A DNA stretch of 51,368 bases from an uncultured Caryophanales bacterium (GTDB lineage Bacteria; Bacillota_I; Bacilli_A; RF39; UBA660): assembly GCA_946623125.1 (NCBI GenBank), contig CAMOQR010000005.1, forward strand, positions 1 to 51,368, read 5' to 3'. Below are positions 5,128 to 24,424 of the stretch, piece by piece; position 1 is the first letter of the stretch; every line of letters begins with the position of its first letter. The notes beneath the pieces were generated by a model, which searched no databases, was not told where the DNA came from, and worked only from the letters and a program-made list of their open reading frames with translations. The position numbers and the translations under genes are program-made.

Positions 5128-8100
5128 ATGAAAAATAATAAATTATATAAAAGATTTATTACAATATGTCCTTTTATATGTTTTTTTATCATACTTGTAA
5201 CAATTTTTTCTTTTTACTCAATTAAGGCAGACATGATTTATAAACTAATTAAAGATACTGATGGTATTACCTGGCAATATGGATATAATGCTGATACAAA
5301 AGAATTAGATGTAATGTTTTTTGATTCTGATAATGATATTACAGAATTAACGATACCGGATAAAAGTTACTTTATATCAAATGATGAAGATGTTGAAGAG
5401 GTAGAAAGTTACAGTTTTTCTAATTATGAAAGTTATAATTTAGGATTTCCTAGGGAGTTAAGTTCTACTATTACAAAAATTGATTTAACAAATGTAGAAA
5501 TTGTTAATGGAATCAAACCACTATCTAATAATGAAGAGGATGCTGTTGAAATTATTTTAAATCCAAATGGTTCTAAAATTGGAAAAGATGCATTTCGTAA
5601 TTTAAGAATTACTATTTTGAATTTAGATAAAGTTTTAGAAGTTGGACCTGGTGCTTTTTATAAAACAATTTTTACCGAAACAAATATAAATTTACCTAAT
5701 GTTACTTCTGTATTAGACGGTTCTTTTGAGGAGTCTAATATTACTTCATTAAAAATCAACTCCCCAGAAATTGGAATATCCGCATTTAAAAATTGCAAAT
5801 ACCTAACTAGTGTTACTCTACTTGATAATGTAAAAACTATTTTAGATAGTGCATTTGAAGGAGATTCTAGGTTAGCTTATTTTATATTTAATCATGCAAA
5901 AAATATTGGAAATAATGCGTTTAAAGATTGTACCTCTTGGAATATTGATATAAAAGATACGGAGATTGAAACATTAGGCACTGGAGTGTTTTGGGGAGAT
6001 ACTGGTTATAGAATAAGTATTACACTTCCAGAAAAGGTAAAAGGAATTAATTGGAGAACTTTTTATGAAACAAATATTACAGGTTTGAATTTAAGAAATG
6101 TTGAAGTTATTGGAGCAGAAGCCTTTCGTGACTGCAAAGGACTATCATCCATTGATTTTGGTAAAGTAGATACTATTAATTATCGTGCTTTTATTAATGA
6201 TTCTAATATTCATAATTTAGATTTATCAACAGGAGTAATTGATATACAAACTCAAGCGTTTGATAATTGTGGTATTGAGAATTTGAATTTAAATGGTGTT
6301 CAAAAAATCGAGCATGGAGCCTTTGCAAATAATATTATAAAAGAATTATATTTACCAAAGTCAATTGCTGTTATGAATACATCTGCGATTTGGTATAATA
6401 ATCCAATTACTAAAATTACCATTGCATTTGATACTTTGTCTAATCAAATTAAGATGTTGTGGGTTTTGTTGGATAAAGATGGCTATAATTATACAGACGC
6501 CACTTATAATGGAAGTAAGTATTTGGAGATGGTTGAATTAGTCGCTCCTTATTCGTCGACTGAGTCGGCAAATATTAATTCTAGATTTAATGTGTCTAGA
6601 AACTATTTTCTAAATCAATATCCTACTATGATTTCTAAGGACCAGGGAAGTGATCAAAATTGGGCAAATCGTTATAAGAATGTTCTGCAAGCTAACTTTC
6701 TTAATAATTTGCTTAATTTAGAAAATGTAAAAATAGGAGAAGGTTATGAATTTTTGGGGGCTGCTCAATTTAATGCTTGGTATGATACTGCACATACAAT
6801 TATTCCAAAGGATAAATTAAAAAGCATTTCTTTGCCATCCACACTAAAGGGAATTGGTGCTGCAGCTTTTCAACAAACATTTTCTGCTAATAATGTACCG
6901 ACTATTAATCTTCCTCAATCTCTAGAATTTATTGGAGCATGTGCATTTTTGTTATCTTTTGGCTTTAAAAATGATATTTACCTACCAAATTTAAAAGAAG
7001 TAGGGTCCTATGCATTTATGTATAGTGGAATTGTTGGTATTACGTTAAATAACAAGCTAGAATATATTGGGAGAGAAGTTGCTAATTTAACCCCTTATTT
7101 AAAGAAGATAGTTTTAGATTGTGATTTCTATGATTTAGTAAAACGATATGATAATGATTATGATTACAGTGATAAACAAATCTTTGCTGCTTATTTTCCT
7201 ACGAGTTATAGTAGTTTTTATCAAACAAGTTTTAAACATGATGGACAATACGATTTAATTCAATTTACTTCAAATGTTAAAACGAATCCTACTTTTTCAT
7301 CAACTTCTTATGGTATGAATTTTGGTGCTTTTTATAACATTAAAGTTACGAATTTTATTTTACAAGACTCTCAAATAACAAATTTAGGAAAGAATACTTT
7401 TATAGAAACTTCAGTATCCACCTTAGTACTTCCAAACACTTTAAAATCAATTGGGAATGATGCATTCTATAATTCTAAAATAGATGTTATGGACTTTTCA
7501 AATACTAGTGTAGAAACAGTTGGTAAATTGGCATTCATGAGAGTAAACGCGTCACTAATTAAGTTTCCACCATCCTTGAAGAAAATAGGGACTCAACTAT
7601 TTTATAAGTCGAAAATTAATACCATTGATTTTGAAAATACTCAATTGGAAACAATCGATGATAATGCATTTCAAGAAGTCCAAGCAGAAAAAGTTTTACT
7701 TTCAAGCACTTTAAAAGAAATCGGAAAACATGCATTCTTTGATGCAAAAGTAGAACAAAATGTGATGTTGTCATCTTCTATACAAAAAATTGATAATAAT
7801 GCATTTCAATTTTTTGATAGTGTAAATTTTCATATAGATTTACCTAATTTAACTTATTTAGGAGATTATGCGTTTCAATATAGTAGTATTACAGGAGTGA
7901 CCTTAAATGATAAATTAACGTACATAGGAACTAATGCGGTAAATCAAACAAAGAATTTGAAAAAAATAATTGTAGACTGTGATTTTTATGCTATAGCACA
8001 ATATTCAGACTATTATGCTAAATATGGACAAGCCTTTTCTAACTTTTTTCCTCATGTAAATAATGGCTATTCTAATAATTATGAATTAATTATATTTACA

Positions 8101-10362
8101 GATAAGGCGTTAACCAATCCTAATACCGCTGGTAGTTATTTTTCAAAAGTAATAGCAACAGATTTTCAATTGGCAGATTCGAAATTTACCAATTTAGGGG
8201 AAAAAGCGTTTTTAGAGGCAGAGTTTACTAATTTATCTTTGCCAAAAGGATTATCTATAATTAAAAACAATACCTTCTTACGAGCAAAGGTAAAAAATTC
8301 AGTAGAAATACCAGACTCTATTACTACGTTTGAAGAAAATGCTTTTATGAGTGCTGATTTATATGCTAGTAACAATCTTCCAAATTCTCTAAAAACAATA
8401 GGGGATTGTGCTTTACTTGATACGATTTATAATAATGATATTATAGTTCCTGCGGGTGTTACAAGTATTGGATATAGTGCTTTTAATGGTGGATACGATA
8501 AAAACACTCATTTACATTTAAACTTACAAAGAAATTCTGTCACTTTCCTAAATCCAATGAATGCAACTGTTACAAAAAATCAGCCAATACATAATTTGTT
8601 TAGAAATAGTATATTAAATGAGTTGATTTTTGGAGAGAATGTCACAGACCTACCTACTAATACATTGAATAATGACAAAAGCAAGGATGAAACAAAACCA
8701 GAATTTGCTCAGATGACCATTAAAAAGATTACTTTAAAAAACATAAAAAAAGTCCCTAGCAAGGCATTCCTCGAATGTAATAATCTAGAAGAAATAGATA
8801 TGAGTGCAGCCGCTGGATTAAATGAATTTGGTTATTATGCCTTTATTGATACGCCAGCCTTAAGAAAAGTTAAAATTCGACAAGGACTTAATATCACTGC
8901 TAAAGATTTTGCATTCCTACGATCTGGCTTGGAAACACTGGGAGATGAATATTCTGGTTTAGATGTTTCTAACAATAAGATAATATTAGATGGTCAGTTT
9001 ATCTTCTCATATATGCCTAATTTAAAAGAGATAAAATTAAAAGGTGAAAAAATCAATAATGGTGTTCTTCCAAAAGGAACATTCTATCAAGATAAAAAAT
9101 TAGAAACAGTAATTTTAGATGATAAATTTACAGAACTTAAACAACAGGTTTTTGCAAATGATGATAGTCTAAAATCAGTTGTAATGTTTGGCGATACAAA
9201 AATATTTGATAATACAACAACTCATACTGCAACTTTCAATGATATTGAAGAACTAAATATTTATATAAATGAAGATACAAAGGATTTTACAATTACTATT
9301 AAAGATCCTAGTAATGGAAATACCACAATTACGAAATCCAATTTTATAGATAATAAATATGTTTATAAAAAAAGTAAAAAATTAAATTCAATTACCTTAG
9401 AAACATCTGATAAAGTATTTTTAGATAAAACAGCATCCGATAGTGTAAGTATAAGAAATATAAGTGTAGATACCATTACCATTGATCCAAGAGCAGATGT
9501 ATATTGTTATTTGAAGAATGAATATTGTAAGACATATAATCAGACGTATAGAGAAGCAAAAGACTTTTACAAAACCGATTTATATTATTTGGATGAAGTT
9601 TTATATCTTGATTCTAATAACAATCAAATAAATCTCAATGATAATCAAACAGGAGTAATTACCGATGATTTGGTGCTATATGCATTAAGAAGAGATGGAA
9701 TTATACTAGTATCTGAAGAATGGGGAAAGAAAACAGGTGCAGTCAAATATGCAGATAGTGGAATTACAATAAAAGATTATAATGCAGCAACAACAAATCC
9801 AAGGTTAAAAGTTTTTAATACTCCGTTACCAATTGATCAAGTAGATACCGATACAAATGATAATTTTAAGAATGTAACATACAGTATAGGAGATATTGAC
9901 CCAGATACAAAGAGAATTCCAATAAATTTTGTGTATCCGAATAAAGTGGTAGAAACAACTGCAGAAACCGATTTAAAGTCATATGGAAATACTGCAAGTG
10001 TTATTTATTCAGATGGTTGTGGAGGAGAAGCATTTGCAAATGTAATATTTATGAATGTTTTAATTGGAAGACAAACACCAAATTATGATGGTATACCTAC
10101 AAGAGAAGGTTATGAATTTATTGGTTGGGATAAGGAAATAGCCACAATTGTATCACAAGATGTAATATACACAGCAAAATGGAAAAAGAAGGAAATAGAA
10201 TATCCAATACCAAGTGTTGACCCACCGCCACAGCAACCAACCCCAACTAATATTCTTGAAATAGTTGAAAATCCATTTACAATTAACAGTTTGGTAGTAT
10301 TCATGGGATTGATTCTATCTATAATAATTCTTACAATCTCCAAAAAACTAATAAAGTATTAA
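5128..10362 (+). CDS. Giant BspA-like leucine-rich-repeat surface protein
   Basis: This 1744-residue protein starts with a signal or anchor segment (about residues 12-34, 'FICFFIILVTIFSFYSI'). Residues about 60-1400 are repeated BspA/LRR_5-type units of the pattern 'L...L.SIG..AF....L..+.LP', seen dozens of times ('LKSIGNDAFYNSKI', 'LKEIGKHAFFDAKV'). Such repeats form adhesive solenoids in surface proteins of gut and oral bacteria. A module of about 160 residues is duplicated (DNA near 6982-7465 and 7840-8290). Near residue 1655 is an InlB/Listeria-Bacteroides B-repeat ending 'GYEFIGWDKE...YTAKW'. The end is proline-rich, then N-P-F-T, a hydrophobic helix and a basic tail (K-K-L-I-K-Y), like a sortase signal. 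It is likely cell-surface exposed; the ligand is unknown. Confidence 0.88.
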   Translation: MKNNKLYKRFITICPFICFFIILVTIFSFYSIKADMIYKLIKDTDGITWQYGYNADTKELDVMFFDSDNDITELTIPDKSYFISNDEDVEEVESYSFSNYESYNLGFPRELSSTITKIDLTNVEIVNGIKPLSNNEEDAVEIILNPNGSKIGKDAFRNLRITILNLDKVLEVGPGAFYKTIFTETNINLPNVTSVLDGSFEESNITSLKINSPEIGISAFKNCKYLTSVTLLDNVKTILDSAFEGDSRLAYFIFNHAKNIGNNAFKDCTSWNIDIKDTEIETLGTGVFWGDTGYRISITLPEKVKGINWRTFYETNITGLNLRNVEVIGAEAFRDCKGLSSIDFGKVDTINYRAFINDSNIHNLDLSTGVIDIQTQAFDNCGIENLNLNGVQKIEHGAFANNIIKELYLPKSIAVMNTSAIWYNNPITKITIAFDTLSNQIKMLWVLLDKDGYNYTDATYNGSKYLEMVELVAPYSSTESANINSRFNVSRNYFLNQYPTMISKDQGSDQNWANRYKNVLQANFLNNLLNLENVKIGEGYEFLGAAQFNAWYDTAHTIIPKDKLKSISLPSTLKGIGAAAFQQTFSANNVPTINLPQSLEFIGACAFLLSFGFKNDIYLPNLKEVGSYAFMYSGIVGITLNNKLEYIGREVANLTPYLKKIVLDCDFYDLVKRYDNDYDYSDKQIFAAYFPTSYSSFYQTSFKHDGQYDLIQFTSNVKTNPTFSSTSYGMNFGAFYNIKVTNFILQDSQITNLGKNTFIETSVSTLVLPNTLKSIGNDAFYNSKIDVMDFSNTSVETVGKLAFMRVNASLIKFPPSLKKIGTQLFYKSKINTIDFENTQLETIDDNAFQEVQAEKVLLSSTLKEIGKHAFFDAKVEQNVMLSSSIQKIDNNAFQFFDSVNFHIDLPNLTYLGDYAFQYSSITGVTLNDKLTYIGTNAVNQTKNLKKIIVDCDFYAIAQYSDYYAKYGQAFSNFFPHVNNGYSNNYELIIFTDKALTNPNTAGSYFSKVIATDFQLADSKFTNLGEKAFLEAEFTNLSLPKGLSIIKNNTFLRAKVKNSVEIPDSITTFEENAFMSADLYASNNLPNSLKTIGDCALLDTIYNNDIIVPAGVTSIGYSAFNGGYDKNTHLHLNLQRNSVTFLNPMNATVTKNQPIHNLFRNSILNELIFGENVTDLPTNTLNNDKSKDETKPEFAQMTIKKITLKNIKKVPSKAFLECNNLEEIDMSAAAGLNEFGYYAFIDTPALRKVKIRQGLNITAKDFAFLRSGLETLGDEYSGLDVSNNKIILDGQFIFSYMPNLKEIKLKGEKINNGVLPKGTFYQDKKLETVILDDKFTELKQQVFANDDSLKSVVMFGDTKIFDNTTTHTATFNDIEELNIYINEDTKDFTITIKDPSNGNTTITKSNFIDNKYVYKKSKKLNSITLETSDKVFLDKTASDSVSIRNISVDTITIDPRADVYCYLKNEYCKTYNQTYREAKDFYKTDLYYLDEVLYLDSNNNQINLNDNQTGVITDDLVLYALRRDGIILVSEEWGKKTGAVKYADSGITIKDYNAATTNPRLKVFNTPLPIDQVDTDTNDNFKNVTYSIGDIDPDTKRIPINFVYPNKVVETTAETDLKSYGNTASVIYSDGCGGEAFANVIFMNVLIGRQTPNYDGIPTREGYEFIGWDKEIATIVSQDVIYTAKWKKKEIEYPIPSVDPPPQQPTPTNILEIVENPFTINSLVVFMGLILSIIILTISKKLIKY

Positions 10363-17031: not shown

Positions 17032-17144
17032 CGTAAAAAAAATAAAAAAAACTTTACATAAAAATAAAAAGAATGATATATTTAAGTTAAGCAAGATGTA
17101 ACTTGCTAATAGGATAATAGAAATAATTGAAAGGTGGTGAAAGT

Positions 17145-17441
17145 ATGGCTGCAGGAACAACAGCAGATTTCCAACAAATCGATAGTGTTATTAACACTAT
17201 GAAAAACTGGTTAGAAGGAGAATATCCAAGTTTAGTAAATAAATTAAAACAATGCATGGATGATCAAATCGCTGCTTCAGGAGAAGGAAAAGCATGGATC
17301 GGACAAAAAGCACAAGAATTTATTACAAAAATGGATGAAAATGTTAACCAAAACTTTAACGTTTATTTCAAACAAAGATTAGATGAGATATCTAACAATT
17401 TAGTAAATCAATTAAATATTTGGAAAAGTGTTTACCAATAG
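17145..17441 (+). CDS. WXG100 family (EsxA/YukE-like) secreted protein
   Basis: This 98-residue all-helical protein has the WXG100 size and layout: a first helix ('DFQQIDSVINTMKNWLEGEY'), the W-x-G turn as 'KAWIGQKAQEF' near residues 48-58, and a second helix ending at 'NQLNIWKSVYQ'. Such proteins are exported as helical-hairpin dimers by type VII secretion (EssC/YukB ATPase) and often pair with larger substrates. AAAGGTGG at 17130-17137 precedes the ATG; the in-frame TTG at 17127 is less likely. It opens a cluster of six genes with no ATPase in the window. I see no clear Y-x-x-x-D/E export motif at its C-terminus. Confidence 0.85.
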   Translation: MAAGTTADFQQIDSVINTMKNWLEGEYPSLVNKLKQCMDDQIAASGEGKAWIGQKAQEFITKMDENVNQNFNVYFKQRLDEISNNLVNQLNIWKSVYQ

Positions 17442-17477
17442 AAAGTTGGTAATGAGTAGAATTTAGGAGGTGAGACG

Positions 17478-17777
17478 ATGGACGGAGTAAAAATGAACTA
17501 CGCAGCAATGATGTCATTAAAGACAGAAGTTGCTAATAGAGGTAGAGATATTAATGACGGAATTGTAAACTGGAAAAACAATGTACTTAATGGTTTACAA
17601 GGAAATTATGAAGGTAATGCTGCACAAGAATTCGATGCTGCATGTAACCAAGTAACTACTGAAATTAATAATAAAATTGCTGAAATACTTCAAGACATCG
17701 ATAAAGCAATCGCTGGAGAACAAGCAAGAAACGAAGAAACAGATGCAGCTGCACAACGTGTATCTGGAAGTCTTTAA
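17478..17777 (+). CDS. WXG100-like small helical protein with the Trp replaced
   Basis: This 99-residue protein has the WXG100 layout: helix ('MMSLKTEVANRGRDINDGI'), a turn 'LQGNYEGNAAQEF' at residues about 36-50 and a second long helix ('NQVTTEINNKIAEILQDIDK'). At the turn the Trp is replaced by Tyr (N-Y-E-G), while the following A-A-x-E-F matches the usual 'GxAAxxF' segment. It is probably a partner of the protein at 17145, either as a heterodimer or as a second substrate. AGGAGGTGA (17465-17473) gives a strong start at 17478. It is followed by a structured gap without a T-run. Confidence 0.75.
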   Translation: MDGVKMNYAAMMSLKTEVANRGRDINDGIVNWKNNVLNGLQGNYEGNAAQEFDAACNQVTTEINNKIAEILQDIDKAIAGEQARNEETDAAAQRVSGSL

Positions 17778-17784
17778 AAATAAA

Positions 17785-17835
17785 AAGAAATTACATTGTA
17801 ATTTCTTATCAAGGTTGGCTATCTCAGGATAGTCT
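17785..17835 (+). other. Two hairpins between WXG100 cassette genes
   Basis: A 10-bp perfect stem (17785-17794 with 17798-17807, loop ATT) is followed by GGCTATC/GATAGTC (about 17818-17834; one G-U pair). Neither has a T-run, so they are more likely mRNA-stability or attenuation structures than a full terminator. They would separate the two abundant small proteins from the genes behind them. Confidence 0.45.
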
Positions 17836-17883
17836 GTCTTGCTAAGAAATTAATGATAGGGAATGAAGAAGGGAGAGATAATT

Positions 17884-18612
17884 ATGGTAGCATATGAACC
17901 AGGAGCAAATAATGGATACGAAGTATTTATGGGAGAAGCATATTCGAACAATTATATATTGCATAAATCTAATCAAGTAACAGCACAAGAAAAGATAGCA
18001 GAAATCAGCGAAAAAATGAATGATTATATGGAGCATATTAAGGACCTAGTTGAAAGAGTAGAAAATTATGGTAGAGTTTTTACAGTAGCGGAGCAACGCC
18101 AAAATATGGATGATGCCTGGATGAAATTATATGATTTTCAATTGGATTTAAATCAAGTTGTGAACCATCCATTACAACAATGGATAGAAAACTATAACTC
18201 GAACCTAGATGAAGCAAATGCGGAACAAGCATTGCAAGATGCTTCAAAGTATCATGCCGACGCAGTAAAAAAAGCAGATAATCTACTTCAGCAGTATGAT
18301 GCTAGGCTTAAAAGTGCTATTAGCAGCTTAAATAGGTGTTATGCAAAATCTCATGCAAATTGTAGTAGACTTGAAAGTAGAGTTAATACTTTAGAGCAAA
18401 ATGTAGACGATTGTGAAGCGGTTATAGATGATTTCAATAGTAACCAACCAAGAAGAGATGAAACAATCGTTGGCTTCTGTAATACCAATTCAAATGTATG
18501 GAGTATTCCAGGAAGACATGGCATAACTGATGTTGTACCAAGTTGGCCAGGTCAATCCCAAAATTGGATATCAACACTTGTAAGTAACTACAAACGACCA
18601 GCAGATTCATAG
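17884..18612 (+). CDS. Helical protein of the WXG100 cassette, K-R-P-A-D tail
   Basis: This 242-residue protein is not recognised. It is almost all helix: a coiled-coil-like stretch at about residues 35-62, an Asn/Asp/Gln-rich middle with 'LQQWIENYNSNLDEANAEQA', and another coil at 115-175 ('SRLESRVNTLEQNVDDCEAV'). A Trp-rich section near 200-230 ('NVWSIPGRHG', 'VPSWPGQSQNW') ends in 'STLVSNYKRPADS'. A similar ending occurs in the next gene. No signal peptide is seen. Start 17884 follows AAGGGAGA (17870-17876). The context suggests a type VII substrate or chaperone, and the length and helix content fit a long WXG/LXG-like fold, but this is only inference. Confidence 0.6.
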   Translation: MVAYEPGANNGYEVFMGEAYSNNYILHKSNQVTAQEKIAEISEKMNDYMEHIKDLVERVENYGRVFTVAEQRQNMDDAWMKLYDFQLDLNQVVNHPLQQWIENYNSNLDEANAEQALQDASKYHADAVKKADNLLQQYDARLKSAISSLNRCYAKSHANCSRLESRVNTLEQNVDDCEAVIDDFNSNQPRRDETIVGFCNTNSNVWSIPGRHGITDVVPSWPGQSQNWISTLVSNYKRPADS

Positions 18613-18636
18613 AAATAGAAAAGAAAGGGGATACAG

Positions 18637-19266
18637 ATGTCAACCGCATTAGTAGACTTTAAAGCAGGACAACAAGCAAATGTATTTACTCCAGATTTAT
18701 CTATTAAAATATCATATATAACAGATTGTACTCAACAATCAATGTCTTTTGGTAAAATAAAGGCGATTGTAGATTATTTAAGTGAAGATATCAAACTATT
18801 AAAGTCTAGTTATGAAGCCATTGGATCAAAAGGAACGGTATTTGTATCTAGAGAATCAACTTATGAATTTCAAGATGCTCTAGATTACATATATGATATT
18901 ATGGAAATATTAAGAGATTTAGAAGAAATAAATCTAAAAGAAATGATTAATGAATATAATACTAATTTAGAAATGGGAAAATCTAAATGGTGTGCTAGAA
19001 GAACAAACCAAATTGTAGATGAAATCAATGAACGAAATGATGGAAAAGGAGTAGTAACAGATTGGGAATGGAACGATTCAGATCATGATTCATGGCACTA
19101 CGTATATACCAAAGTAATAAGGAGAAGCGTGACAGCCCCCGGAACCCTAAAAAAATGGTATGATCAAGATGTAATTAGAGAATTAGAGGCTCCTCCTTTT
19201 AATGTAGAAGGATTTGATTCATGGTTAAATGGTTCAATGAAACGCCCAAGTGATACTGGAGAATAA
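18637..19266 (+). CDS. Uncharacterised protein of the WXG100 cassette, K-R-P-S-D tail
   Basis: This 209-residue protein is not recognised. The N-terminal half is mostly helical ('IKAIVDYLSEDIKLLKSSYE', 'YIYDIMEILRDLEEINLKEM'). The second half is rich in Trp, Asp and His ('VTDWEWNDSDHDSWHYVYTK') and ends 'FDSWLNGSMKRPSDTGE', resembling the tail of the preceding protein. There is no signal peptide or membrane segment. A purine-rich GAAAGGGGA site at about 18624-18632 precedes the ATG. The gene is followed by a terminator, so the four genes from 17145 form one unit. A role in type VII-type export is suggested only by position. Confidence 0.55.
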   Translation: MSTALVDFKAGQQANVFTPDLSIKISYITDCTQQSMSFGKIKAIVDYLSEDIKLLKSSYEAIGSKGTVFVSRESTYEFQDALDYIYDIMEILRDLEEINLKEMINEYNTNLEMGKSKWCARRTNQIVDEINERNDGKGVVTDWEWNDSDHDSWHYVYTKVIRRSVTAPGTLKKWYDQDVIRELEAPPFNVEGFDSWLNGSMKRPSDTGE

Positions 19267-19292
19267 AATGGATGAAAATCCATTTTTTTTTT
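19266..19292 (+). terminator. Intrinsic terminator closing the first WXG100 unit
   Basis: AAATGGAT (19266-19273) with ATCCATTT (19278-19285), GAAA tetraloop, then T-run to 19292. Confidence 0.85.
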
Positions 19293-19314
19293 GAAATAAG
19301 GGAAAATAATATTC

Positions 19315-19343
19315 TTTACAGAATACTTGAAAAAAGATATAAT
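19315..19343 (+). promoter_or_regulatory. Promoter of the first large paralog
   Basis: TTTACA (19315-19320), 17 bases, TATAAT (19338-19343). The start codon is at 19413 after a leader of about 63 bases, with GAAGGTG at about 19401-19407. Confidence 0.7.
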
Positions 19344-19412
19344 TAAACTAGATTAAAATGAGATAATAATAGCAAGCAAATAGAACAATTCCATGAATGA
19401 GAAGGTGTTAAA

Positions 19413-20981
19413 ATGAATAATTCAGATAATTTGATATCATCTGCAAATAAAGATTTACAAGACTACAATTATGATGAGATGTCTAAATACATACAAAATT
19501 TTGATGAAGTTATAGATAATTTAGAAGGATATTTTAGAACAATTAATAAAGGAATGAATAATTTAGAATATCGAGTAAGTGATTATTTAGAAAAGACATT
19601 TAAAACAAAAGAATTGTATTCCTTAATTAACAAAGCACGAACTTCATTGAATGAATATAGAAACTTTGTCCATGTTCAAAATGAAAAGACAAATGATGCA
19701 AATCTAAGAGTAGAAAGAGCAGCATCAGAGGCCGGAGAAGGAAAGGCTCAAACGAGTGAGATTCAACTTCATGAAATTAAAGATGCAGTAGAAGAAAAAG
19801 TAGAAAAACAGGTAAAGACATGGAAACAAGAAGAAAAAAATACTCAGCCATCTCAAGAACAAAATACAAAGAAAACCCAGTTAGTGCAAGTAGCGGAAAA
19901 TGGAAACAACGTTAAAGAAACTATATCTGATGTTGAAACGGGTACTGCTAAAAAGATTGATGTGTCAAATGAAATAAATTTAGTAGAAGATGCAATAAAA
20001 GATTCAGAATTAGCAGAAAAAGGGCCAGCAGTAAAGAAAACATTACGCGTCAAAAAAGATGAAGTTGTTGAAAAAGAAGCAGATCCAAAAGCAACAAAAG
20101 TAGAAAGATCAGGAGAAAAACCTACAGCAACAAATTATTCAACAACATATGGATCAACAACAACCTTATCAAGTAGCATGGATGGAATCGTTAAATTTTC
20201 TGATTCATGGAATGTATTTGATGGAGATTTAGGTACAATGAAGTCATCACGATCATCTCTAAACCACTTTGATAGTGGAAGATCTGGAAAAGTAGCAAAT
20301 TTTGAAACATCTGGATCAGGGGAAAGTGGAAACACAAATACAAATTCAGGGAAACCTTCTATACTATCTTCTGCAGCAACAAACTTAAGACCTACACTTT
20401 CTAATAATACAGGAGGACAAAACGGAATGAACATACCACAAAGCAGACCAAGAGGAGAAACAACCTCTACTGCAGGAATGCTAGCAGGAGGAGGCTTAAT
20501 GCTTGGAGGAATTGCTGGAGGAGGTTTATTGCTTACGAAAAAAATGGGTTATTATGTTTTTGGCCCTAAAGATTGGAATGACGAAACTCCAACAATGAAA
20601 AACGTCATTATAAGAAAAATGGCAAGTGTAGGATTTCGCAAAGAAGATGTAGAACAATTCCAAAGAGCAACTTTTAAAATAAAGAAACAAGAAATAGATG
20701 ATCATATTAAGTTGATAAAGACAGCAATGAGAAACAATAAAAACATAGAAGAACAATTTATGAAAATGTACAATTTCAGTATATTTGATGGAAAAGACAT
20801 AGATCCCTATTATTTATTTATCGTAATGATAATAGATGGAGGAGACTCTATAGATGGAACAAACATGTATAATATTATAAATCAATCACTAAGAAACGAA
20901 GATGAAGCAAACTTTATTTATACAGGAATTCAAATGGATGATTACATTTATGATGAAGAAGATAACGAGGAAGAAGAATAA
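19413..20981 (+). CDS. One-TM protein of the WXG100 cassette, paralog A
   Basis: This 522-residue protein belongs to no family I recognise. Layout: residues about 14-105 form a helical domain starting 'KDLQDYNYDEMSKYIQNFDE'; 105-350 are a low-complexity Lys/Glu then Ser/Gly/Asn-rich linker; about 354-377 is a Gly-rich membrane helix ('GMLAGGGLMLGGIAGGGLLL') followed by K-K; 380-508 is a compact domain beginning 'YYVFGPKDWNDETP' with 'MYNFSIFDG' and 'YYLFIVMIIDGGDSIDG'; the tail is acidic (D-E-E-D-N-E-E-E-E). Both the N-terminal and C-terminal domains are repeated in the protein encoded at 21096. There is no N-terminal signal peptide. It has its own promoter and no terminator of its own. Confidence 0.6.
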   Translation: MNNSDNLISSANKDLQDYNYDEMSKYIQNFDEVIDNLEGYFRTINKGMNNLEYRVSDYLEKTFKTKELYSLINKARTSLNEYRNFVHVQNEKTNDANLRVERAASEAGEGKAQTSEIQLHEIKDAVEEKVEKQVKTWKQEEKNTQPSQEQNTKKTQLVQVAENGNNVKETISDVETGTAKKIDVSNEINLVEDAIKDSELAEKGPAVKKTLRVKKDEVVEKEADPKATKVERSGEKPTATNYSTTYGSTTTLSSSMDGIVKFSDSWNVFDGDLGTMKSSRSSLNHFDSGRSGKVANFETSGSGESGNTNTNSGKPSILSSAATNLRPTLSNNTGGQNGMNIPQSRPRGETTSTAGMLAGGGLMLGGIAGGGLLLTKKMGYYVFGPKDWNDETPTMKNVIIRKMASVGFRKEDVEQFQRATFKIKKQEIDDHIKLIKTAMRNNKNIEEQFMKMYNFSIFDGKDIDPYYLFIVMIIDGGDSIDGTNMYNIINQSLRNEDEANFIYTGIQMDDYIYDEEDNEEEE

Positions 20982-21012
20982 TGTAAAGGAAAAAATGTTC
21001 TAAACTAAAATC

Positions 21013-21041
21013 TTTACAAGGAGAAAAAAAGTCGATATAAT
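21013..21041 (+). promoter_or_regulatory. Promoter of the second large paralog
   Basis: TTTACA (21013-21018), 17 bases, TATAAT (21036-21041), the same arrangement as before paralog A. The start codon at 21096 follows GAGAGGAG. AACTC at about 21066-21070 and GAGTT at about 21086-21090 can pair over this ribosome binding site. Confidence 0.7.
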
Positions 21042-21095
21042 AAAAATATAATGTAAAAATAGGGGAACTCTAAAAAGATAGAGAGGAGTTAAAAT

Positions 21096-23123
21096 ATGAG
21101 TGAAGGAATGTCAAAACAAGAAGCCGCTGCAGTAAAAGCAACACAAGATACAATAAGTTCATTAACATCATCAGGGATAATGTCAGATGTATTAAGTGGT
21201 AATATGGCTGCAGGAAACGATAACTTTGGAGTAACACCAACCAAAACCCAAACGGAATCAACAAAAACAACAGGGAAACCATCTGCAAAAGATGTTGGAA
21301 ATATGACTATTGGAAATGATATGGCAGATGAAACAATTACAATGGGTAAGAGTGCAGATAGAGGTGGCCCAGGTGATCATGAGGTACAAGCCATAATTGA
21401 TGAAAAACTAGAACAAAAAAAGCAAAATAAAACTCCAACACAAGTACAAAGAGAAGATAAAGCAAATAATGGTGGAGGATCAGGAAAAAAAGATCTTCAG
21501 AATTATAGTTATGAAGAAATAAATATGATTATTCAAGAACTTGAGAAATTGATTGAAGATTTGACAAATGAAGGTGAGGACACAAATCAACAATTCTCAA
21601 TTTTTGATCAAAGAGTCTACACATACTTTGATGAAAAAAATTCTATCCAAGGAACATTAGATAAATTAGCAGAAGCAATTGAAAAATTAAGACTATACTT
21701 AGATTGGTTAAGAAGAAAGAATGAACAAGTAAATTCTGCCGCAAATCAAGCAGCAGCCGTAGCAGCAGGACTAGGAGCATCCGGTGGTGGTGGTGGAGCA
21801 GCAGGACTTGGAGCAGCCGGAGCAGGAGCACAAGCACAGGCTCCAGAATCAGCACCAACTTCAGAGCCAGTAACAGAACCGGAAACAGAGCCAGTAACAG
21901 AGCCAGAACCTGAAGAAGAAGAAGAGGAAGAATATGATGAATATGATGACTTCGAAGAATACGAATCACCTGAGATTGAAGATCCTGGATTTGATAATCA
22001 ACCTTATAACGAGCGTGATTTTGATATTGACCGTGGAATCAATAATGACGGCACAAGAAGATTTTCAGACTACGATTATGACGATTACTCTGGATCTGAC
22101 GGAATAAATACCAACGGAATGAGAAATTGGGATACAGGTGGTGGCTACAATTACGATGACTATGATAGGAATACCGGAGGAGACTATAATAGATTTAGAA
22201 ATAATAATGATCCTGGATATGATTATGGTGATAATAATAGTGGAAACACTTCTAACTGGGGAGGTGGCGGAGGCTCTTACCCAGGAGGAATTACTGGAGG
22301 ATCTGGATCAGGCGCTGGATTATCAGGCGGAACTGGTTCATTATCAGATGGCCTAATTGATATCAAAGGTGGAGGATCAACTGATGGTGTTGGAGAAACC
22401 ACTGGAGGATCATCTGTAGATGGTAAAAACCTTGCAACAAGCTTTGGAGACGTATTAAAGAATGGTGTATCACGACTTGCAAGTGGAATATCTCCAACAA
22501 GCAGAACAAATGGACAATCAGGAATCAATCCAGGAGCCCTTGCAGGAATTGGCCTTGCAGCAGGAGGATTAATTGCTGGAGCAGGATTAATTGCTAAGAG
22601 TCAATTCTCAACATATACATTTACACCAGAAGATTGGGAAGACTTAGATGAAGAAACACAAAATATTATTTTAGCAGACTTCAGAAAAGTAGGATTCTCA
22701 GAAGAAGAAATTAATGTATTTGTAAATTCAACATTCAAGATTAAAGCATCTGAATTAGATGAACATACAAAGAAAATTCAAAAAGTTTATGAAGTAGATG
22801 AAAACTTAGAAAATGAATTAGCAGAAATGTATAACTTCAGTTGCTTCGATGAAGATGAAAAAATAGATAACTATTATGTATTCATCATGTTGATTATAGA
22901 TGGTAAAGATACAATGGATGAAGTTAACTTGTACAATATCTTAAATGTTAACTTAGAAGAAGACGATGTAGACTTCATTTACTCAGGTATTAATATGGAA
23001 GAATATATCTATGACGAAGATGAAGAAGAAGAAGAATCTGAAGAAGACGTAGAAATTCAACAAGGAGATTCTGACGGTGAAGATACGGAAGATTGGTTAA
23101 AAGATATAGGACTAGATGAATAA
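21096..23123 (+). CDS. One-TM protein of the WXG100 cassette, paralog B
   Basis: This 675-residue protein is a longer paralog of the one at 19413. Residues 1-130 are a Ser/Thr/Lys-rich leader; about 131-225 repeat the helical domain ('KKDLQNYSYEEINMIIQELE'); 225-470 are low complexity, first Ala/Gly, then Glu/Asp ('EPEPEEEEEEEYDEYDDFEE'), then Gly/Asn/Tyr/Asp-rich; about 479-500 form a Gly/Ala membrane helix ('ALAGIGLAAGGLIAGAGLIA'); 505-645 repeat the C-terminal domain ('TFTPEDWEDLDEETQ', 'MYNFSCFDEDEKID', 'YYVFIMLIIDGKDTMDE'); the tail is acidic and ends 'WLKDIGLDE'. No catalytic motif is seen. It may be a membrane component or surface structure linked to the WXG100 proteins. Confidence 0.6.
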   Translation: MSEGMSKQEAAAVKATQDTISSLTSSGIMSDVLSGNMAAGNDNFGVTPTKTQTESTKTTGKPSAKDVGNMTIGNDMADETITMGKSADRGGPGDHEVQAIIDEKLEQKKQNKTPTQVQREDKANNGGGSGKKDLQNYSYEEINMIIQELEKLIEDLTNEGEDTNQQFSIFDQRVYTYFDEKNSIQGTLDKLAEAIEKLRLYLDWLRRKNEQVNSAANQAAAVAAGLGASGGGGGAAGLGAAGAGAQAQAPESAPTSEPVTEPETEPVTEPEPEEEEEEEYDEYDDFEEYESPEIEDPGFDNQPYNERDFDIDRGINNDGTRRFSDYDYDDYSGSDGINTNGMRNWDTGGGYNYDDYDRNTGGDYNRFRNNNDPGYDYGDNNSGNTSNWGGGGGSYPGGITGGSGSGAGLSGGTGSLSDGLIDIKGGGSTDGVGETTGGSSVDGKNLATSFGDVLKNGVSRLASGISPTSRTNGQSGINPGALAGIGLAAGGLIAGAGLIAKSQFSTYTFTPEDWEDLDEETQNIILADFRKVGFSEEEINVFVNSTFKIKASELDEHTKKIQKVYEVDENLENELAEMYNFSCFDEDEKIDNYYVFIMLIIDGKDTMDEVNLYNILNVNLEEDDVDFIYSGINMEEYIYDEDEEEEESEEDVEIQQGDSDGEDTEDWLKDIGLDE

Positions 23124-23127
23124 AAAA

Positions 23128-23159
23128 AAATAACATCTCATAATTGAGATGTTATTTTT
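23128..23159 (+). terminator. Intrinsic terminator closing the WXG100 cassette
   Basis: A perfect 13-bp stem (23128-23140 with 23145-23157), loop TAAT and T-run. The adjoining A-run on the other side gives a weaker terminator for the - strand. Confidence 0.9.
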
Positions 23160-23325: not shown

Positions 23326-24424
23326 ATGGAAATAAAAGAACAAAAAAAGGAACTTGAATCAGTTAAAGAAAAAATTAATCAAATATGGAGGTCACTTTGA
23401 CCTCGATAAGAAAAAAGAAAAAGTAAAAGAATTACAACAAGAAACAGAAAAGTTGGATTTTTGGAATGATAAAAATAATGCAGAAATAATCATGAAAGAA
23501 ATGAATGATGAAAAAGATGTAATTGATAAAATAGAGAATATTAAAAATGAAATAGAAAGTAATCTAGAACTATTACAATTATTAGAACAAGAAGAAGATC
23601 AAGATATGTTAACAGAAGTAGAAAAAAACATTAATTCTATAAAACAAGAAACTGCTGAAATGGAAGATTTAACTTTCTTGAATGGACCTTATGATAAAAA
23701 TAACTGTATTTTAGAAATACACCCAGGAGCAGGAGGAACAGAGTCTTGTGACTGGGCAAGTATGCTATATCGTATGTATCAAAGATGGTGTGAAAAAAAG
23801 AACTATAAGTTAACAGTACTAGATTATCAAGCAGGGGATGAAGCAGGAATAAAAAGTGTTGCAGTTTTAATCAAAGGATTAAATGCTTATGGATATTTAA
23901 AAAATGAAAAAGGTGTACATAGATTAGTACGTCTTTCTCCATTTGATTCAAACAATAGAAGACATACCTCTTTTGCATCCGTTGAAGTAACTCCAGACAT
24001 GGATAAAGATATTGATATCGAAGTAAACGAAAAGGATTTAAAAATAGATGTTTATCACTCATCAGGTGCTGGAGGACAAAGTGTAAATACAACAGATTCT
24101 GCTGTAAGAATTACCCATATTCCAACCAAAATAGTTGTAACTTGTCAAAATGAAAGAAGCCAAATACAGAATAAAGAACAAGCATTAAAAGTATTAAAAA
24201 ACAAGTTAATGATGATAGAATTAGAAAAGAAAGAAGAAGAATTAAATAAAATTAAAGGAATTCAATCTAATATTGATTTTGGTTCTCAAATACGAAGTTA
24301 CGTAATGCATCCATATTCTATGGTAAAAGATCATAGAACAAACGTAGAAACCAGTAATGTATCGAAAGTAATGGATGGAGATATAGATTTATTTATAGAA
24401 AGTAATTTAAAAAGGAAGATATAA
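23326..24424 (+). CDS. prfB: Peptide chain release factor 2, made by programmed +1 frameshift
   Basis: RF2 ends translation at UGA and UAA. The first frame runs from ATG 23326 through 24 codons to CTT (23395-23397) and an in-frame TGA (23398-23400). Reading resumes one base later (GAC at 23399), giving 365 residues in all. Upstream of the stop, GGAGGT at 23387-23392 serves as the internal Shine-Dalgarno that promotes the shift, three bases from CTT as in other prfB genes. In the second frame the RF2 codon-recognition motif S-P-F is in 'RLSPFDSNNRRHTSFASVEV' and the catalytic G-G-Q is in 'SSGAGGQSVNT'. GGTGA at about 23316-23320 precedes the start. This is autoregulation: low RF2 allows frameshifting. 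Confidence 0.96.
23387..23401 (+). promoter_or_regulatory. prfB programmed frameshift site
   Basis: GGAGGT, TCA/C spacing, then CTT-TGA-C. This is the canonical prfB shift element: internal Shine-Dalgarno, slippery CUU and UGA followed by C, a weak termination context. Confidence 0.95.

What the first reader, a model, noticed from the sequence alone, without database searches (positions are those of the whole stretch)
17145..23123. Six-gene WXG100 cassette without the usual secretion ATPase or a known toxin
Two WXG100-type proteins, two unrecognised helical proteins with a shared tail motif, and two large one-TM paralogs lie together between two housekeeping units. It has three readable transcription units (terminators at 19266 and 23128; promoters at 19315 and 21013). 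WXG100 proteins normally leave through EssC/YukB, but none is seen here. No LXG toxin, immunity gene or EsaA/EssB-like gene is recognisable either. This could be a reduced or new kind of type VII-linked surface system.
Basis: partly seen in the sequence, partly recalled or inferred. Interest (0 to 1): 0.85.

Follow-up and report, generated by a model that had tools for sequence, protein, structure and literature searches.

The report
Genus-specific type VII secretion substrate cassette
A block of six genes in an uncultured gut bacterium most likely makes a set of export partners that carry two large membrane-anchored proteins out through a stripped-down type VII secretion machine encoded elsewhere in the same genome; the protein families are new, but the way it works is probably a variation on known type VII substrates.

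Summary
The six genes are real, and their unit is conserved: two WXG100-type proteins (A, B), a helical partner (C/D) and a large one-TM protein (E/F). The E/F family occurs in 15 of 39 genomes of one genus, mostly within this unit; its repeat domain was absent or only marginal in about 390 other genomes sampled at class level and again at phylum level. The window is one filled copy of an accessory site (gltAD|prfB) that is empty in two relatives. The ATPase is not missing: the same genome encodes EssC and an EsaB/YukD-like protein on another contig. EssC was in all 19 genus genomes searched; EssB and EsaA gave no match above cut-off in 39. A, B, C and the F N-terminal hairpin co-vary across cassettes; the F repeat domain does not. 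In one close pair, C and the F hairpin are 37% and about 20% identical between mostly 90-98% identical flanks, while the F anchor, later repeats and tail stay 81-89%. Best reading: A, B, C and the F hairpin form an export-targeting complex for an N-out/C-in anchored protein. A glycine-zipper toxin is less likely: motif not enriched, no immunity gene. Topology, export and function are inferred.

The parts
17145..17441 (+). A: WXG100-type hairpin (W-I-G motif), 98 aa
   Evidence: W51 and G53 invariant in 12 homologs; 4 of 12 match PF06013
17478..17777 (+). B: WXG100 protein with Y-x-G turn, 99 aa; most relatives carry a C-terminal YxxxD/E tail, the window copy lacks the Y
17884..18612 (+). C: helical partner, 242 aa, tail KRPADS (paralog of D)
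18637..19266 (+). D: C-family partner, 209 aa, tail KRPSDTGE; low-confidence model = helices, three strands, short helix
19413..20981 (+). E: F-family large protein, 522 aa
19461..19727 (+). E N-terminal helical hairpin (about residues 17-105)
   Evidence: inferred from alignment with F
20478..20534 (+). E Gly/Ala-rich hydrophobic helix (residues 356-374)
20559..20912 (+). E 118-aa repeat domain
21096..23123 (+). F: F-family large protein, 675 aa
21510..21779 (+). F N-terminal helical hairpin (residues 139-228)
   Evidence: (pLDDT about 60)
22539..22595 (+). F Gly/Ala-rich hydrophobic helix (residues 482-500)
22620..22973 (+). F 118-aa repeat domain (pLDDT about 85)
23091..23120 (+). F C-terminal tail DWLKDIGLDE, a motif shared with many relatives
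19315..19343 (+). promoter-like site upstream of E
21013..21041 (+). promoter-like site upstream of F
17053..17082 (+). promoter-like site upstream of A (10 of 12)
19267..19295 (+). weak terminator-like hairpin with T10 after D
   Evidence: seen directly in the sequence
23126..23159 (+). terminator-like 15-bp inverted repeat after F

Best explanation
An accessory type VII secretion substrate cassette. A and B form the WXG100 pair (B-type tails in most relatives carry a YxxxD/E export signal). C/D bind the N-terminal helical hairpin of E/F, and A, B, C and the F hairpin together form the export-targeting complex that is recruited to the EssC/EsaB machine encoded on another contig. EssC pushes the N-terminal part of E/F out; the Gly/Ala-rich helix stops transfer, leaving an N-out/C-in surface protein with a disordered stalk outside and, in the window copies, the repeat domain and the acidic tail inside. 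Shown by computation: co-occurrence, co-variation, presence of EssC, absence of EssB and EsaA matches above cut-off, hydrophobic helix, basic residues mainly on its C-terminal side. Inferred: complex formation, export, topology, surface function.
For: EssC (FHA plus two FtsK domains) and an EsaB-like protein in the same genome, EssC-type ATPases in all 19 genus genomes searched. A family with invariant WxG; B family WXG100 in 10 of 12 members, with YxxxD/E at one aligned position in 7 of 12 and WxxxD in 2. C and F counts equal in nearly all cassettes: five have two of each, the others one of each. A, B, C and the F hairpin co-vary (C-F hairpin rho 0.475, p 0.0002, n=15; A-B, C-A and C-B 0.64-0.79) while the F repeat domain co-varies with none. 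In G003/G008, C is 37% and the F hairpin 20-22% identical, the F helix, later repeats and tail 81-89%, flanking proteins mostly 90-98%. K/R 63 after versus 32 before the hydrophobic helix, 16 of 23 proteins in that sense, 2 against. F hairpin: two of the top second-look rows are HP0062 and EsxA:EsxB (Z 8.8, 8.4), weak. Known precedent: LXG-Lap1-Lap2 pre-secretion complexes (PMC9600955), EsaD-EsxBCD (PMC10653861).
Against: The repeat domain lies before the hydrophobic helix in some relatives, after it in others and on both sides in G002, G003, G008, G012, G013 and G418, which a simple two-compartment topology does not explain. The window's B lacks the Y of YxxxD/E. Three cassettes (G010, G418:C2, G425) have an F without a C. 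A, B, C and the F hairpin are adjacent on the DNA, so linkage could add to the co-variation. The structure models are poor outside the repeat domain. No physical link between this cassette and EssC is shown.
Confidence: 0.55

Rival explanations
1. E/F are secreted antibacterial effectors that insert their Gly/Ala-rich helix into the membrane of competitors, like the glycine-zipper LXG toxins TelE and EsxX; A, B and C are their export partners (Laps).
For: Same general layout: WXG-type partners, helical N-terminus, Gly-rich hydrophobic segment in the C-terminal half. Fast divergence, as in antagonistic systems.
Against: The zipper pattern is not enriched (7 of 23 segments, 11.2 expected from shuffles; F itself none). 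No immunity-like gene: in G012, G418:C50 and G412:C7 the cassette is just A-B-C-F followed by prfB. In G003/G008 the C-terminal half is the conserved part and the N-terminus varies, the reverse of polymorphic toxins. C co-varies with the F hairpin, not with the rest. No LXG match in nine F-family proteins.
Confidence: 0.2
2. E/F are accessory parts of the secretion machine that stand in for EssB or EsaA, which the genus lacks.
For: EssB and EsaA have no match above cut-off in 39 genomes; F is one-TM. The F tail (WLxxIGIDD) resembles the tail of the small protein X encoded beside EssC (SLEALGDD); 14 such tails plus one unrelated among 890 ORFs.
Against: F is found in only 15 of 39 genomes although EssC was in all 19 searched. 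It is never beside EssC in the loci read. Several genomes carry two or more F genes. The tail resemblance was found post hoc, and the window genome's own X lacks that tail.
Confidence: 0.12
3. E/F are cytoplasmic or peripheral proteins; the hydrophobic segment is an oligomerisation element and nothing is exported except perhaps A and B.
For: No signal peptide seen; repeat domain on either side of the segment; AlphaFold2 leaves the segment unstructured.
Against: All 23 complete F-family proteins keep a Gly-containing 19-residue stretch with mean hydropathy 1.3-2.1, mostly followed by basic residues; long Gly/Ser/Thr/Asn-rich stalks are typical of surface proteins (general knowledge).
Confidence: 0.13

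Closest known systems
LXG effector with Lap1/Lap2 targeting factors (T7SSb; PMC9600955)
   Same: Small WXG100-like hairpins encoded beside a large protein with a helical N-terminus; [quoted passage not shown]
   Different: No LXG match, no recognised toxin domain, no immunity gene; an additional 200-290 aa partner C; in the close pair the C-terminal half of F is conserved and the N-terminus variable
EsaD-EsxBCD-EsaE complex of S. aureus (PMC10653861)
   Same: One large substrate with several helical partners
   Different: EsaD is a nuclease with immunity protein EsaG; whether C resembles EsaE/EspG is not settled here
T7SS variants T7SSc-T7SSj (PMC11217815)
   Same: EssC-type ATPase with an EsaB-like protein, without EssB or EsaA; substrates beside extra WXG100 proteins
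   Different: The EssC locus of this genus (EssC, EsaB-like, small proteins X and Y) was not matched here to any named subtype; the cassette families are not mentioned in the sections read
Glycine-zipper T7SS toxins TelE and EsxX (PMC10434224, PMC12744356)
   Same: Gly-rich hydrophobic segment in a protein with a helical N-terminus
   Different: No zipper enrichment, no immunity genes, conserved globular repeat domain after the segment in the window copies

Membership tests
WXG100 (PF06013), protein A | about 100-aa helical hairpin with W-x-G in the turn | tested here: met
   W51 and G53 invariant in 12 homologs; Pfam hits in 4 of 12 members, not in the window member
WXG100 (PF06013), protein B | Pfam profile above its curated cut-off | tested here: met
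   32.7 bits against a cut-off of 27.3; 10 of 12 family members match
T7SS export signal in B | YxxxD/E after the second helix | tested here: inconclusive
   Present at one aligned position in 7 of 12 homologs, WxxxD in 2, absent in the window copy
LXG effector (PF04740) | N-terminal LXG domain | tested here: not met
   No match in E, F or seven relatives
LXG effector (PF04740) | variable C-terminal toxin domain with immunity gene | tested here: not met
   C-terminal half is the conserved part in G003/G008; no extra gene in the G012, G418:C50 and G412:C7 cassettes
Glycine-zipper toxin (TelE/EsxX) | (G/A/S)xxxGxxxG or GxxxGxxx(G/S/T) in the hydrophobic segment | tested here: not met
   7 of 23 against 11.2 expected by shuffling; F none, E one
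T7SSb machine in this genome | EssC ATPase with FHA and FtsK domains | tested here: met
T7SSb machine in this genome | EssB (PF10140) | tested here: not met
   No match above cut-off in 39 genus genomes, B. subtilis control found; the weak own-genome match is a PASTA-type kinase
T7SSb machine in this genome | EsaA (TIGR03929) | tested here: not met
   None above cut-off in 39 genomes; none at all in the window genome, which is 71% complete
T7SSc-T7SSj subtype | EssC phylogeny and subtype-specific gene set | not tested
   No tree with the published EssC set was built
WXG100-like fold of the F hairpin | helical hairpin superposing on WXG100 structures | tested here: inconclusive
   HP0062 Z 8.8 and EsxA:EsxB Z 8.4 lead the list, inside the noise range for helical bundles
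Functional substrate of EssC | EssC-dependent export | not testable with these tools
   needs a culture or reconstitution

The most novel reading that the evidence does not exclude
A type VII machine without EssB and EsaA inserts N-out membrane-anchored surface proteins: a four-part helical targeting complex (A, B, C and the F hairpin) drives export of the N-terminus, a stop-transfer helix holds the protein, and the variable end is the exported hairpin-plus-partner while the conserved end stays inside, the reverse of polymorphic toxins.
Probability: 0.3. Interest if true: 0.75.

Novelty: new variant of a known kind. Interest (0 to 1): 0.5.

Why it matters
If right, type VII systems do more than release effectors: they would also place anchored proteins on the cell surface, in a genus of uncultured gut Bacilli whose machine lacks two core T7SSb parts. 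The modular co-variation gives a direct, testable prediction of which parts bind each other. The 118-aa repeat domain, the C family and the F family match nothing convincing in the libraries searched.

Tried and rejected
Missing ATPase: rejected, EssC is on contig C6. Chance grouping of unrelated genes: rejected by recurrence in relatives. Own-genome EssB candidate at C20: it is a PASTA-type kinase. Glycine-zipper toxin motif: not enriched. Known domain for the repeat: no Pfam, PDB-sequence or Foldseek match of value; the domain was not folded and searched alone, so its fold is untested rather than new. Foldseek on D gave nothing (model pLDDT 45). EF-hand or dockerin reading of the DxxGxI stretch: by eye the loop positions do not fit. 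EssC C-terminal variants linked to cassette presence: identity profiles of cassette-bearing and cassette-free genomes look alike in 12 genomes. The genome-contig scan with the wide alignment could not be run; the narrower one found four close relatives only. Weak phylum-level hits G502 and G323 (E 4e-6 and 3e-5, partial) were judged chance-like and not followed. A literature search for WXG100 with rumen metagenomes found nothing on point.

Full report
What was checked. B is WXG100 by Pfam; A belongs to a family with an invariant W-x-G. C and D are diverged paralogs sharing the KRP[AS]D tail; E and F are paralogs, clearest over their C-terminal half.

The missing ATPase. The window's genome is a 1.14-Mb, 41-contig assembly, 71% complete. 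It has an EssC of 1524 aa (FHA and two FtsK domains) on contig C6, followed by an 84-aa EsaB/YukD-like protein (identified by position and sequence look; no Pfam match) and two small helical ORFs, here called X and Y. EssC-type ATPases were found in all 19 genus genomes of that search, several genomes with two to four; where the neighbourhood was read, one class is EssC-EsaB-X-Y-type beside housekeeping genes and a second class (about 38% identical) has its own small-protein cluster. EssB (PF10140) has no match above cut-off in 39 genus genomes with B. subtilis found as control; EsaA (TIGR03929) has none above cut-off. EssC/EsaB systems without EssB are already known as T7SSc-T7SSj (PMC11217815). 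So the cassette is not a system without an ATPase but a set of substrates and partners at a distance from the machine; the genome has further WXG100 sites on C1, C2, C12 and C6.

Recurrence. A profile of a 118-aa repeat domain in E/F (22 copies in the first set) finds the family in 15 of 39 genus genomes. In 394 other genomes in the class draw it finds nothing, and in 391 others at phylum level only two weak partial hits. The cassettes mostly read A-B-C-F; the window, G005, G013, G431 and a second G412 site have two C and two F. Three F genes (G010, G418:C2, G425) have no C; in G006 and G423 the neighbour is a C by position and weak similarity only. At one site, between the gltAD-like pair and prfB, the cassette is present in the window, G003, G008, G012, G013, G412 and G418 (and cut by a contig end in G431), and absent in G426 and G006. 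Named relatives are uncultured Bacilli MAGs, among them two from yak and sheep rumen.

Anatomy of E/F. N-terminal helical hairpin (F 139-228, pLDDT about 60), long disordered stretch, one Gly/Ala-rich hydrophobic helix, a confident globular repeat domain (F 506-640, pLDDT about 85), acidic tail ending in a WLxxIGI motif in many relatives. Basic residues lie mainly on the C-terminal side of the helix (63 versus 32; 16 of 23 proteins), which by the positive-inside rule suggests N-out/C-in. There is no evident signal peptide, so export of the N-terminus would need another route; type VII is the obvious one given the WXG100 partners. Against a simple picture, relatives carry the repeat before, after or on both sides of the helix.

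Who goes with whom. Similarity matrices of A, B, C and the F hairpin correlate with each other across cassettes, while the F repeat domain correlates with none of them: C against F hairpin rho 0.475 (p 0.0002, n=15), C against the rest of F 0.06; with repeats from the same position and with A and B included the pattern holds, at lower significance in the smallest sets. In the close pair G003/G008, whose flanking proteins are mostly 90-98% identical (one 82%), C is 37%, the F hairpin 20-22%, A 72%, B 63%, and the F helix, post-helix repeats and tail 81-89%. This is one pair; in G005/G431 the contrast is small, in G010/G418 it is intermediate. Physical linkage may contribute, but the hairpin and repeat of F are in the same gene and do not co-vary. 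The natural reading is one export complex made of A, B, C and the F hairpin, as in LXG-Lap1-Lap2 and EsaD-EsxBCD complexes.

Toxin or surface protein. A glycine-zipper toxin of the TelE/EsxX type was the strongest rival. The strict zipper pattern occurs in 7 of 23 segments against 11.2 expected by shuffling, and not in F; no immunity-like gene accompanies the A-B-C-F cassettes followed directly by prfB; the conserved part is the C-terminal half; no LXG domain matches. A membrane-anchored surface protein fits better but is not shown. A machine part replacing EssB is less likely because F is absent from most EssC-bearing genomes.

Tail resemblance. The F tail (for example EWLKGIGIDD) resembles the tail of protein X encoded beside EssC (SLEALGDD); a pattern made from the two finds 14 of them and one unrelated protein in 890 ORFs. 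The pattern was made after seeing both, and the window genome's own X lacks the tail, so this is a lead only.

Verdict.

Noticed in passing
L004 (contig C6) 13448-14204: Two small helical ORFs (X, Y) follow EssC and the EsaB-like gene; X has a GWxxxDNxNY turn and may be a miniature WXG-type component of the machine.
   Followed up: partly
L123, L125, L127, L134, L135, L140 (protein X C-termini): X proteins end in a conserved SLEALGDD-like tail after a variable linker, resembling the F tail.
   Followed up: partly
L019 9300-11560 (contig C1), L020 8380-10324 (C12), L021 3688-4611 (C2), L018 7416-7730 (C6): Further WXG100 substrate sites in the same genome, some with NlpC/P60-type or peptidase-like domains.
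   Followed up: partly
L038 2872-5366 and L110 3834-6542: An F gene beside four small WXG-like genes and an NlpC/P60-like protein, conserved between G010 and G418.
   Followed up: no
L045 9058-14640: FHA-ABC transporter fusion, PP2C phosphatase and PASTA kinase next to an F gene in G006.
   Followed up: no
L044 10120-11025, L115 2398-3285, L118 8711-9634, L045 4304-5955: Members of one unidentified family (similar to G006a_3/4) recur near F cassettes.
   Followed up: no
window 23390-23401: prfB has the usual programmed frameshift site (CTTTGA); ordinary.
   Followed up: no
window 5128-10362: 1744-aa BspA-type leucine-rich repeat surface protein (PF13306).
   Followed up: no
L018 2515-4821 (contig C6): 768-aa surface-like protein with a weak Hint (intein-like) domain match in its C-terminal half.
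   Followed up: no
L136, L137, L138 (G001); L139, L140 and contig C7 (G007): Some genomes of the genus carry three or four EssC genes of different classes.
   Followed up: partly
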